Assembly: GCA_016872675.1 (NCBI GenBank)
Contig: VGZG01000035.1
Location: 1-32,685 of the forward strand
Source: Planctomycetota bacterium
GTDB taxonomy: Bacteria; Planctomycetota; UBA1135; UBA2386
DNA length: 32,685 nt
Direction of reading: 5' to 3'
Part shown: positions 29,593 through 32,685 of the stretch, piece after piece
How positions within the stretch are numbered: position 1 is the first letter of the stretch
Layout: every line of letters starts with the position of its first letter
Notes under the pieces: model-generated
The model's input: the letters and a program-made list of their open reading frames with translations, nothing else
Told to the model about the DNA's origin: nothing
The model's database searches: none
Program-made: the position numbers and the translations under genes

Positions 29593-30297
29593 TCAGCCTG
29601 TCGGCTGCGGCGGAACAGCGACCACCAGACTGCGCCCCGCGCGGCCGTGGTCCAGCCACCGGAACTCATACGCATTGGCGAGGAAGAACGGCGGGTAGCT
29701 GTACCAGAGCGTGTTCGGGCTCGGTTGATCGTACTGCACCCAATAGGCCGGGCCGATGCGCCGACCTTCCTGCAGCCAGAACGGCGCCGGCTCGGGTCGG
29801 CCGCCGGTCCAGTACACCGGTTCCGTCGTCACGAAGACGCAGAACCTCTGCGCGGACAAGCGCGGATGCGAGCCCGCCGCGCGCATGCGCTCGAGGCGAT
29901 GCATGTCCTTCAGGACGGCGTACCCGTAGACGTCGGACTTCCGCTCGGTGACGTACTTCAGCTCGAGCGGGATCGCTTCGTCGCCGCGCCGCCAGAGCAA
30001 GTCGAGCTTGGCGCCGCGCGCGCATGGATCCTTGCCTTCGGGCGGCAACGCCTTGGGCGGCTGTGCTCGCGCCAGCGCCTCGATCGCCGAACTCGGCGGC
30101 CGCTTGGGCGGCAACCGGGGCGCGTCGAACGACGCCGCCAGTTCGCGCTCGACCGAGCCGAGCGCTTCCGCGAGCGCAGCCTGGAAACGGTCTTCGTCGG
30201 GAAACCTCGCACCGCCAGCCAAGACCGAGGCGAGGGCGCGCTGCAGATCGGAGAGAACGTTGTTCATGGTCGTCGGGGGAAGCGCTGCCTGGCGCAT
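29593..30297 (-). CDS. PD-(D/E)XK nuclease-like protein
   Basis: This 234-residue protein shows a nuclease core: D99 in AKLDLLW, then E112-x-K114 in PLELKYVT. The spacing of 12 residues between D and E is normal for PD-(D/E)XK folds. Helix-rich DVYGYAVLKDMHRLERM and the strand AQRFCVFVTT follow, as in restriction-like nucleases. The C-terminal half is Trp/Tyr/Pro-rich (WVQYDQ, LWYSYPPFF). It would cut DNA or RNA in a metal-dependent way; the target is unknown. ATG 30297 overlaps the upstream stop (TGATG), so it is translated with the HhH gene; M11 (30267) is an alternative. It is the last gene of a three-gene unit with defence- or repair-like content. Confidence 0.78.
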   Translation of the reverse strand: MRQAALPPTTMNNVLSDLQRALASVLAGGARFPDEDRFQAALAEALGSVERELAASFDAPRLPPKRPPSSAIEALARAQPPKALPPEGKDPCARGAKLDLLWRRGDEAIPLELKYVTERKSDVYGYAVLKDMHRLERMRAAGSHPRLSAQRFCVFVTTEPVYWTGGRPEPAPFWLQEGRRIGPAYWVQYDQPSPNTLWYSYPPFFLANAYEFRWLDHGRAGRSLVVAVPPQPTG

Positions 30298-31043
30298 CAG
30301 GCGCGCTCCGCGCGCGCGTACCAGATGATCTGATCGAGCTCGAACGGGTGCATGCCGAGCGCCGTGCCGGCGTCAGCCAATCGGCGCAACATCTCGTCGA
30401 CGGGCGCGTCCTTGGCGATGCCGCAGGCCTCGCTGACCACCGCGCGCACGTGCGTGTCGAGCTTCGGCCGCAGATGGCCGACGTTCATGAGGACGTTGGA
30501 CGTGAGCGCCTCGCCGAGGCCGGACGTCGTCAGCAACGCGTGCTCCATCCGCGCCCGCCGCGCTGCGTCCTGGGCCCATGCGTGGGCGTCCGTCGCCGAA
30601 GTCACGCCGAGCGCGAGCAGTCGTTGGCACGCCGCGAGGATCGTCCGCACGCGCCCTTCCGTCGACAGGTGGTTGTGGCTCGGCGCCGCCGGGTCCTTCG
30701 GCGGCTTGCCGAACGTGCCCTGGAAGACCGTCGTCCACGGCTGGCGGCAGAACTCGGCCAGCGACGCGCGACCCCACGCCGCCGCGAAGGGGCGCACGTG
30801 GTTGAGCACGGCGGTCCGGTAGATCTTCTGTTTGCTGAACACGGCGTCCGCGACCGCCACGTGCAGCGTCTGGAAGCGGCCGCTGCGCCAGCGCTGCAGT
30901 TCCCGGACACCGACCTCGCGCGCCGTCACGATGTGGCCGGTGAGCGCGCTGGCGCGACCCTCGATGTAGTCGTCCCAGTTCGTCCAGTGCACCCGCGTGG
31001 CGGCGAGGCGGCGGATCTCGTCCGCCAGACGTTGCGCCGTCAC
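30297..31043 (-). CDS. helix-hairpin-helix (endonuclease III/HhH-GPD-like) protein
   Basis: This 248-residue protein carries a hairpin-like SGLGEALTSNVLMNVG followed by RPKLDTHVRAVV, with D196 at the position of the catalytic Asp of HhH-GPD glycosylases (endonuclease III has VDTH). The Lys of bifunctional glycosylases is replaced (Ala or Leu), and there is no four-Cys iron-sulfur cluster. It may be a monofunctional glycosylase-like or simply DNA-binding protein. It ends LGMHPFELDQIIWYAR, which I have seen in HhH-type proteins of unknown role. The GTG at 31043 overlaps the upstream stop (GTGA), so translation is coupled; the frame is open further upstream but runs through the small gene. It lies between the small beta-rich and nuclease-like genes. 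Confidence 0.72.
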   Translation of the reverse strand: MTAQRLADEIRRLAATRVHWTNWDDYIEGRASALTGHIVTAREVGVRELQRWRSGRFQTLHVAVADAVFSKQKIYRTAVLNHVRPFAAAWGRASLAEFCRQPWTTVFQGTFGKPPKDPAAPSHNHLSTEGRVRTILAACQRLLALGVTSATDAHAWAQDAARRARMEHALLTTSGLGEALTSNVLMNVGHLRPKLDTHVRAVVSEACGIAKDAPVDEMLRRLADAGTALGMHPFELDQIIWYARAERA

Positions 31044-31345
31044 GACGACTGCTCCCCGACGATCGTCGGTGTCACGGTGACCGCAGCGCGGACTTCGCTG
31101 CCGTGGTCGAGGCCGAGGCCCCGCAGCGTGGCGGTGATGATCCGGTTGCTGCTCGCCGTCGTCGGGCCGAGCCAACAGGTGGAGCCCTTGGTGCGCACGA
31201 GCCCGCGCACCGCGGCCTTGCCGCCGAGGTCGAGTTCGACGGCCGTGCGCTCGCCGAGTTGGAGGGTCTCCAGCTCGCGCCGGCAGAGCTGGATGTAGAG
31301 GGTGTCGCCGAATCGGCTGAGGCGACGGATCTTGCTGGTCAGCAT
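31040..31345 (-). CDS. 101-residue beta-rich protein, first gene of the nuclease operon
   Basis: This small protein starts MLTSKIRRLSRFGDTLYIQL and looks all-beta, with RTAVELDLGG, RGLVRTKGSTCWLGP and a final LRGLGLDHGSEVRAAVTV. The start resembles an AbrB/MazE-type DNA-binding strand pair. The stretch from RTAVELDLGG to the end resembles the beta region of the divergent zinc-ribbon protein (RLLLGAP, then SRAKNTPTYFL, then LNELGYTERDDVLLERV). A role in DNA or nucleotide recognition, or autoregulation, is inferred only. It has a real Shine-Dalgarno (AAGGA, 4 nt before ATG), unlike most genes here, and an inverted repeat 17 nt upstream. Its stop overlaps the next start. Confidence 0.7.
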   Translation of the reverse strand: MLTSKIRRLSRFGDTLYIQLCRRELETLQLGERTAVELDLGGKAAVRGLVRTKGSTCWLGPTTASSNRIITATLRGLGLDHGSEVRAAVTVTPTIVGEQSS

Positions 31346-31349
31346 GGTG

Positions 31350-31354
31350 TCCTT
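31350..31354 (-). promoter_or_regulatory. Shine-Dalgarno sequence of the nuclease operon
   Basis: On the minus strand AAGGA lies 4 nt before the ATG at 31345. Most genes in the window lack such a site, so this operon's first gene is probably made from a transcript with a proper leader. Confidence 0.6.
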
Positions 31355-31362
31355 GGTGATTT

Positions 31363-31381
31363 GGCGCCCAGGTCGGGCGCC
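31363..31381. repeat. perfect inverted repeat (operator candidate)
   Basis: GGCGCCC (31363-31369) and GGGCGCC (31375-31381) form a perfect 7-bp inverted repeat around AGGTC. It sits 17 nt before the start of the small beta-rich gene, in the divergent control region. It could be an operator bound by a dimer (the small protein itself is a candidate) or an mRNA hairpin in the leader. Confidence 0.5.
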
Positions 31382-31391
31382 TCGCTAAGCT

Positions 31392-31443
31392 GCCCCCGCT
31401 ATCCGCCCCTGTCACCTTGTTCCCTTCGCTAGCCCCCGCTATC
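31392..31443 (+). repeat. direct repeat GCCCCCGCTATC, two copies 40 bp apart
   Basis: The 12-mer occurs at 31392-31403 and 31432-31443, each preceded by CGCTA. The 40-bp spacing is about four helical turns, so two protein copies could bind one DNA face. The second copy overlaps the -10 of the zinc-ribbon gene promoter (TATCGT), which makes a repressor or activator site plausible; a duplicated promoter is the other reading. Confidence 0.5.
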
Positions 31444-31445
31444 GT
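31417..31445 (+). promoter_or_regulatory. putative promoter of the zinc-ribbon gene
   Basis: TTGTTC (31417-31422) and TATCGT (31440-31445) are separated by exactly 17 bp, the best sigma70-like pair I see in the window. The leader to the GTG at 31481 would be about 28 nt and has no clear Shine-Dalgarno. The surrounding ~130 nt are less GC-rich than the genes. Confidence 0.5.
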
Positions 31446-31480
31446 TGTTAGTTGGGACTTAGCCGTCCTTCCCTCCGAGC

Positions 31481-32685
31481 GTGCCTCCAACCGACCCCGC
31501 AGGCTGCAACGTCTTCTGCCGCCGGTGCTTGCGCACCGAAGGTCGGCTCGTGACCGGCGGCACGTACTGCCCGCACTGCCGCGACGAACTCGCCCCACTA
31601 CCTCCCCGCTTCCTCGCCCAACTAGCAGATTGGACCGAGGAAGAACTCACCCACCGGCCCGCCGCCGCATCGTCCGGGGTCGCCGGCGACGCGCGTGAAC
31701 CCATCCGCGGTCGCACGCGCCGCGCCCCGTCCGGCAAGCATGGCTACGCGCCGCGGCTCGAGCTCATCGTGCCGAACTCGCAGGGTGGCCTGCTGCTGCC
31801 CGGCCCGCGCCAACCGTTCCGGCTGCTGCTGGGCGCACCCGGCCGGGAGACCGAGGTCATGGCTTCGGTCAGTCGTGCGAAGAACACCCCGACGTACTTC
31901 CTCGCCTCGGTCCAGAAGCAGGGCGCGCGCGCGAAGCTGAGCGACGAGCTCAACGAACTCGGCTACACCGAGCGCGACGACGTCCTGCTCGAGCGCGTCG
32001 AAGATGGCGCTGCCTTCGCCATCCGTCCGACGGCGCGACCGAGGGAGCAAACGACCCTGATCGCGCGACCGGGACTGCGCGACGAGCCGAAGCTCGCGCG
32101 CGCGACGACGCCGACCTGGTCGCCGGCGGAACTGCGGCGACTCGTCGCCGAGTACGACGCCGGCTCGTGGCGCGGCAAGGGCAACGTCGAGCTCGATCGC
32201 ACGGCGTACAGGCTGTTCGCCGCCGGCCTCGCCGTCGACACGGCGCGCCTCGTCGACATGCTGGCGCACGTCGGCGAGTTCTACGGTGGCGCCTACCGAC
32301 CAGAAGGGCCGGTCCGCGAACAGGCCGCGAAGCTGGCCGCGAAGATCGAGCTACAGCGCGCCAAGCTGGCGGACCTGCTCCGCGCACAGGCGCCCTTGGT
32401 CGACCGTTTGCCCAACGTCGACCACGTCGTCAACCTGCTGCAGCCGTTTCACACCGAATCGAAGACATGGTTCGTCTGGGGCGCGAAGTTCCTGCACTTC
32501 CTGCGGCCCGACACCTTTCCGATCATCGACCGTCGCATCGAATTGGCGCTCGGGTTGCGCCAGCGCGTCAGCAACACGCCGGGCTACCTCGTGGCGTTCT
32601 GCAAGGTCGTTCGCAAGGTCGTCGTCGCGAACCACGACGCGCTGTGGCAAGCGCGCCGCGAAGGCCCAGAACACGCCGAGCCGAG
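31481..32685 (+). CDS. zinc-ribbon protein with beta-rich and HhH-like domains (3' end outside window)
   Basis: An open frame runs from GTG 31481 (in-frame stop at 31460-31462) off the window edge, at least 401 residues. The N-terminus is a zinc ribbon: C13-x2-C16 and C30-x2-C33 (FCRRC, YCPHC). A linker to about 85 is followed by a beta-rich part (about 90-170) resembling the small 101-residue protein across the promoter. A helical stretch leads to TWFVWGAKFLHFLRPDTFPIIDRRIELALGL near 330-358, which resembles the HhH-like domain found near restriction and defence genes; D350 is at the place of the glycosylase Asp. Zinc-dependent DNA binding is inferred. It is divergent from the nuclease operon and probably functionally linked. 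Confidence 0.75.
   Translation, partial: MPPTDPAGCNVFCRRCLRTEGRLVTGGTYCPHCRDELAPLPPRFLAQLADWTEEELTHRPAAASSGVAGDAREPIRGRTRRAPSGKHGYAPRLELIVPNSQGGLLLPGPRQPFRLLLGAPGRETEVMASVSRAKNTPTYFLASVQKQGARAKLSDELNELGYTERDDVLLERVEDGAAFAIRPTARPREQTTLIARPGLRDEPKLARATTPTWSPAELRRLVAEYDAGSWRGKGNVELDRTAYRLFAAGLAVDTARLVDMLAHVGEFYGGAYRPEGPVREQAAKLAAKIELQRAKLADLLRAQAPLVDRLPNVDHVVNLLQPFHTESKTWFVWGAKFLHFLRPDTFPIIDRRIELALGLRQRVSNTPGYLVAFCKVVRKVVVANHDALWQARREGPEHAEP

What the first reader, a model, noticed from the sequence alone, without database searches (positions are those of the whole stretch)
29593..32685. Divergent four-gene DNA-targeting module of unknown type
Three minus-strand genes with overlapping start/stop codons (GTGA, TGATG) encode a small beta-rich protein, an HhH-GPD-like protein with LDTHV, and a PD-(D/E)XK-like nuclease (D99, E112, K114). 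A divergent zinc-ribbon gene shares the control region. Seen: the overlaps and motifs. Known: HhH glycosylase-like and PD-(D/E)XK proteins act on DNA and are common in defence islands. Inferred: together they recognise modified or foreign DNA and cut it, or take part in a repair pathway. I know no named system with this set.
Basis: partly seen in the sequence, partly recalled or inferred. Interest (0 to 1): 0.75.

Follow-up and report, generated by a model that had tools for sequence, protein, structure and literature searches.

The report
Glycosylase-fold and nuclease gene pair
A bacterium carries, side by side, a gene for a protein shaped like DNA-base-removing repair enzymes and a gene for a small DNA-cutting enzyme whose relatives sit inside known virus-defence gene clusters and mobile DNA; the pair probably helps destroy foreign DNA, but it was not found together in any other genome examined here.

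Summary
In detail: three overlapping minus-strand genes and a divergent zinc-ribbon gene, the latter cut off by the contig end. All four look coding and have no Pfam, NCBIfam or PADLOC assignment. P0001 has the PD-(D/E)XK layout; D99, E112 and K114, plus E35, are invariant in relatives from bacteria and archaea. Those relatives lie beside type I restriction genes, inside two BREX-5 loci, in prophages, on plasmids and, in this same genome, in an integron cassette. P0002 is predicted to fold like HhH-GPD DNA glycosylases (EndoIII, OGG1, MutY), keeps the catalytic Asp (D196 in LDTHV), and lacks the lyase Lys and Fe-S cysteines. Its one close relative lies in a restriction-modification island. The four-gene set is not conserved: relatives of P0001 and P0002 were never found together, and P0003 and P0004 are orphans. 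Best reading: a defence-type DNA-targeting operon built from two independently moving parts, a base-recognising or base-excising protein and a stand-alone nuclease. Joint action is inference. The nearest functional analogues, Brig glycosylases and restriction glycosylases, have different folds.

The parts
29593..30297 (-). P0001, 234 aa (224 aa if it starts at Met11, base 30267): PD-(D/E)XK nuclease; E35 at 30193-30195, D99 at 30001-30003, E112 at 29962-29964, K114 at 29956-29958
   Evidence: active-site residues invariant in 5 diverse relatives; predicted alpha-beta-beta-beta-alpha-beta core; nuclease hits in PDB fold search (weak)
30297..31043 (-). P0002, 248 aa: HhH-GPD (DNA glycosylase) fold protein; hairpin G175-L-G177 at 30513-30521; LDTHV with D196 at 30447-30461
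   Evidence: best model pLDDT 89.5; top PDB folds EndoIII-3, MutYX, OGG1; D196 aligns with the catalytic Asp of the host's own Nth/MutY, A179 stands at the lyase Lys position
31040..31345 (-). P0003, 101 aa orphan, first gene of the operon; AAGGA just before its ATG
   Evidence: coding-like GC3 of 0.92, no significant relative
31346..31480 (.). 135-nt intergenic region shared by the two divergent units
   Evidence: no sigma-70-like promoter or terminator found by consensus scan
31481..32685 (+). P0004, at least 401 aa, truncated by the contig end: N-terminal CX2C-X13-CX2C zinc ribbon, C-terminal region weakly like DUF6308
   Evidence: PF19827 E=0.0073, below its cut-off; no other relative

Best explanation
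The minus-strand genes form a small operon of the DNA-targeting defence type. P0002, an HhH-GPD fold protein that keeps the activating Asp but lacks the lyase Lys, scans DNA and flips out, and probably excises, an unusual or foreign base (monofunctional glycosylase). P0001, a PD-(D/E)XK nuclease, cuts the DNA, either at the abasic sites so made or independently. P0003 and the divergent zinc-ribbon protein P0004 would be regulators or accessory DNA-binding parts. Shown here: gene layout, both folds by prediction, conserved active-site residues, defence and mobile-element neighbourhoods of the relatives of both proteins. Inferred: that the two act together, that P0002 excises a base, and what base or sequence is recognised.
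For: Operon layout with overlapping genes. P0001: invariant E35, D99, E112-L-K114 and a Y-x2-LKD-x2-R-x-E helix across a Planctomycetota-type genome, its integron paralogue, Paracoccus and Halorarius; PD-(D/E)XK topology with RecB, MGME1, HincII and cap-snatching endonucleases among the fold hits. Relatives: 53 bp downstream of hsdM-hsdS-hsdR and next to McrC in G140; beside HsdR in G454; inside BREX-5 loci of Halorarius and Halocatena; in prophages of Paracoccus and Peptoclostridium; on plasmids; in an integron cassette of the same genome with attC-type hairpins and a TIGR02249 integrase. P0002: HhH-GPD fold, D196 matched to the catalytic Asp, relative in a restriction-modification island of G169. 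The host has three ordinary HhH-GPD genes elsewhere, so P0002 is not its housekeeping glycosylase.
Against: P0001 and P0002 relatives do not co-occur, so joint action rests on one operon in one genome. In G169 the P0002 relative overlaps a different, 413-aa gene. Fold matches do not reach E=0.001 (best 0.027 for P0002, 0.067 for P0001), and four of five P0002 models were poor (pLDDT 59-68). No PADLOC hit. No experiment.
Confidence: 0.42

Rival explanations
1. Independent neighbours: P0001 is a stand-alone mobile restriction-type nuclease that acts by itself, and P0002 is an unrelated defence or repair gene that happens to be upstream in the same island.
For: P0001 relatives are single genes in integron, prophage, plasmid and BREX settings; the integron paralogue lies in a single-gene cassette; no P0002 relative in those genomes or records.
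Against: In the window the genes are tightly packed, with stop-start overlaps, in one direction, which usually means co-transcription.
Confidence: 0.3
2. P0002 is a catalytically inactive HhH-GPD fold used as a DNA-recognition subunit that brings P0001 to its target; no base is excised.
For: No lyase Lys (A179 at that position) and no Fe-S cysteines (sequence); in the wider family only a few residues such as K194 and D196 stay invariant.
Against: The Asp that defines monofunctional members is kept in every relative, as is expected of an active enzyme.
Confidence: 0.15
3. A small base-excision repair operon for an unusual lesion: P0002 removes the base and P0001 nicks at the abasic site.
For: Fold of P0002; DNA composition of the region equals that of the rest of the window, so no sign of recent import.
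Against: Sparse distribution: no P0002 relative in the other genomes of the class (154 searched) and one convincing relative in 382 of the phylum; P0001 relatives lie in defence loci and mobile elements, not repair operons.
Confidence: 0.1

Closest known systems
Brig1/Brig2/Brig3 anti-phage DNA glycosylases (PMC11078745, PMC13160076)
   Same: A DNA glycosylase-type protein outside housekeeping repair, in a defence-like setting, expected to be monofunctional
   Different: Brig1 and Brig3 belong to the uracil-DNA-glycosylase superfamily; P0002 has the HhH-GPD fold. Brig1 acts alone; here a nuclease gene follows.
PabI-family restriction glycosylases (PMC10273834)
   Same: Idea of restriction by base excision followed by strand breakage, which AP endonucleases enhance
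   Different: HALFPIPE fold and known sequence specificity; none of that in P0002; no methyltransferase gene in the window operon
HhH-GPD DNA glycosylases (Nth, MutY, OGG1, AlkA)
   Same: Predicted fold and Asp in a DTHV-type motif
   Different: No PF00730 match, no lyase Lys, no Fe-S cluster ligands; long different N-terminal half
Unnamed ~210-aa PD-(D/E)XK family of BREX-5, type I RM, prophage and plasmid loci (e.g. WP_255153069, WP_229774415, UBL09587 'putative nuclease')
   Same: P0001 shares E, D, ELK, Y-x2-LKD-x2-R-x-E and YW motifs
   Different: P0001 and its two closest relatives carry an extra 'RP...LPEGKDPC' stretch before D99 and lack the insert after ELK that ends in QGA(Q/H)D

Membership tests
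PD-(D/E)XK nuclease superfamily | D followed by (D/E)XK on adjacent strands of an alpha-beta-beta-beta-alpha-beta core | tested here: met
   D99 on strand 97-104, E112-L-K114 on strand 107-116, helix 123-136, strand 152-157; residues invariant in 5 sequences. Model pLDDT 75.6.
PD-(D/E)XK nuclease superfamily | Significant structural match to a solved member | tested here: inconclusive
   many of the top hits are PD-(D/E)XK nucleases but the best E is 0.067 and TM-scores are about 0.25.
HhH-GPD DNA glycosylases | Overall fold | tested here: met
   the top 11 PDB hits are all HhH-GPD glycosylases (prob 0.87-1.00), TM 0.42-0.48, E 0.027 and above; one good model of five.
HhH-GPD DNA glycosylases | Helix-hairpin-helix followed by a catalytic Asp about 17-20 residues on | tested here: met
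   G-L-G then D196, aligned with the host Nth/MutY Asp; probability 31%, single-comparison E 5e-4.
HhH-GPD DNA glycosylases | Match to the Pfam HhH-GPD profile PF00730 | tested here: not met
   no match at E up to 10. So it is filed as HhH-GPD-like by fold, not as a member of that Pfam family.
HhH-GPD DNA glycosylases | Base excision activity | not testable with these tools
   Needs purified protein.
Known anti-phage systems (PADLOC) | Match of any component to a PADLOC model | tested here: not met
   none at E up to 5; none for the relatives.
Four-gene conserved module | Same genes adjacent in other genomes | tested here: not met
   sampling limited to one phylum, plasmids, phages, viral contigs and one genome-contig scan (of P0001 only).
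Brig glycosylases | Uracil-DNA-glycosylase superfamily fold | tested here: not met
   the credible hits are HhH-GPD enzymes, none of the top 50 is a UDG.

The most novel reading that the evidence does not exclude
A new kind of base-excision restriction: an HhH-GPD-fold glycosylase marks modified or foreign DNA with abasic sites and a dedicated PD-(D/E)XK nuclease from the same operon turns them into breaks.
Probability: 0.17. Interest if true: 0.78.

Novelty: new variant of a known kind. Interest (0 to 1): 0.45.

Why it matters
If the two proteins act together, defence by base excision would extend to the HhH-GPD fold and gain a dedicated cutter; the anti-phage glycosylases in the papers read here have other folds. 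Independently of that, P0001 belongs to an unnamed, widespread nuclease family that moves through integrons, prophages, plasmids, BREX-5 and type I restriction loci, a concrete candidate for defence screens that current models miss.

Tried and rejected
Known-family filing by Pfam, NCBIfam, PADLOC and PHROGs: nothing above cut-off. Idea that P0003 and the middle of P0004 are homologous, and that P0002 and P0004 share a C-terminal domain: rejected, alignment scores no better than shuffles (z 0.85 and 0.46) and pairwise or profile comparison finds nothing. Sub-threshold matches of P0002 to ~600-aa Planctomycetes proteins: read by eye these are prolyl-tRNA synthetases and frame-shadow ORFs, not relatives. 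P0003 matches at E about 0.002-0.009 are not convincing. Viral-contig scans with P0001, P0002, P0004 and two alignments gave no locus. No solved-structure sequence relatives. Recent import of the region: no composition break.

Full report
1. What is there. At its right end three minus-strand genes follow each other: P0003 (31040-31345, 101 aa), P0002 (30297-31043, 248 aa) and P0001 (29593-30297, 234 aa), joined by GTGA and TGATG overlaps. P0004 starts at 31481 on the other strand with a CX2C-X13-CX2C zinc ribbon and runs off the contig. Third-codon GC is 0.85-0.93 in all four, like the neighbours. The TGATG overlap depends on the start of P0001: its relatives begin at the position of Met11, but a GGAG precedes the first ATG.

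2. Family searches. Pfam, NCBIfam, PADLOC and PHROGs give nothing above cut-off for any of the four; the best sub-threshold hit is P0004 to DUF6308, E=0.0073. There is no sequence relative among solved structures.

3. P0001 is a PD-(D/E)XK nuclease. A paralogue with 46% identity lies in the same genome (C26) and a 44% relative in G454. AlphaFold2 on these three sequences gives helix 35-46, strand 49-57, strand 97-104 with D99, strand 107-116 with E112 and K114, helix 123-136 and strand 152-157 (pLDDT 75.6, pTM 0.79), which is the superfamily layout. Foldseek against the PDB finds RecB, AddAB, MGME1, HincII and cap-snatching endonucleases among the best hits, but none is significant. A relaxed tblastn reached Paracoccus (E=7e-5) and Halorarius (E=0.05) proteins; aligned with the others, E35, D99, E112, K114, Y126, L129, D131, R134, E136 and Y162-W163 are invariant. 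The Halorarius protein in turn finds relatives in Halocatena, Peptoclostridium, Rhodococcus, Sphingobium, Natrinema, Actinacidiphila and Prescottella.

4. Where P0001 relatives live. Halorarius and Halocatena: inside BREX-5 loci. G140, same family as the host: N-terminal domain of a 447-aa protein, 53 bp behind hsdM-hsdS-hsdR and next to an McrC gene (hhalign 99.3%). G454: beside an HsdR end. Paracoccus and Peptoclostridium: prophage head modules, between terminase and portal in the latter. Rhodococcus and Prescottella: next to plasmid replication genes. Others (Sphingobium, Natrinema, Actinacidiphila) have no clear defence neighbour within 7 kb beyond an RM-annotated gene and umuDC in Sphingobium. 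Host genome: a one-gene integron cassette, with hairpins of attC type on both sides (DNA fold z -5 to -7) and an integron integrase over its NCBIfam cut-off; the 5' end of the cassette gene is repeated at the contig end, so the array probably holds a second copy. Integron cassettes of unknown function often prove to be anti-phage (as cited in PMC12444791). This is a pattern of mobile elements and defence loci, counted on about a dozen loci without a formal background.

5. P0002 is an HhH-GPD-fold protein. Only one convincing relative was found, in G169 (41% identity, E=1.3e-50). With two sequences AlphaFold2 gave one good model (pLDDT 89.5, pTM 0.84) and four poor ones. Its best PDB matches are D. 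radiodurans EndoIII-3, a MutY relative without the iron-sulphur cluster and OGG1, with AlkA lower down. Profile comparison with the host's own and related Nth/MutY proteins aligns the hairpin and puts D196 on the catalytic Asp; A179 occupies the Lys position (probability 31%, so supporting only). A wider set (Arthrobacter protein annotated heme peroxidase, probability 96%, E=5e-9; weaker in Erythrobacter and Bosea) keeps K194, D196, N187 and W241. Hence: glycosylase fold, monofunctional-type residues, activity untested. The G169 relative lies about 2.8 kb from an Eco57I-type methylase with a convergent nuclease-like gene, and overlaps another, 413-aa gene.

6. Is it a module? No relatives of P0001 and P0002 were seen together: of seven genomes and records with P0001 relatives searched with the P0002 profile only the host has it, G169 has no P0001 relative (the tool warns that an empty answer is weak), and local tblastn over all loci then held agrees. 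P0003 and P0004 have no reliable relatives.

7. Mechanism. Established knowledge: HhH-GPD enzymes flip a base into a pocket and use the Asp for excision; the Lys adds lyase activity; PD-(D/E)XK enzymes hydrolyse DNA with bound metal. Published precedents show that base excision alone can stop phages (Brig1, PMC11078745; Brig3, PMC13160076) and that AP endonucleases promote restriction after base excision (PMC10273834). The simplest joint reading is recognition and probable excision by P0002 followed by cutting by P0001. Everything after 'fold and residues' is inference; the main rival is that the nuclease works alone, as its scattered solo relatives suggest.

8. Verdict. Worth a bench test, and the P0001 family deserves a name.

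Noticed in passing
L002 1-2077 (G000:C26, contig start): Integron in the host genome: integrase (TIGR02249) with a cassette that encodes a P0001 paralogue; the attC-type hairpin and the gene's first bases are repeated at the contig end, suggesting a duplicated cassette.
   Followed up: partly
L070/L072 (G140:C82, 7757-9100 of L072): P0001-type nuclease domain fused to a ~230-aa C-terminal part, directly downstream of hsdMSR and next to McrC.
   Followed up: partly
L033 7663-7740: Degraded copy of the C-terminal end of a P0002 relative about 0.9 kb from the intact gene in G169.
   Followed up: no
L053 7001-7630, L050 7863-8492: P0001 relatives inserted among prophage terminase, portal and capsid genes, a position often used by mobile endonuclease genes.
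   Followed up: no
L066 3572-4234: Arthrobacter plasmid gene annotated heme peroxidase is an HhH-GPD-like relative of P0002; the annotation is probably wrong.
   Followed up: partly
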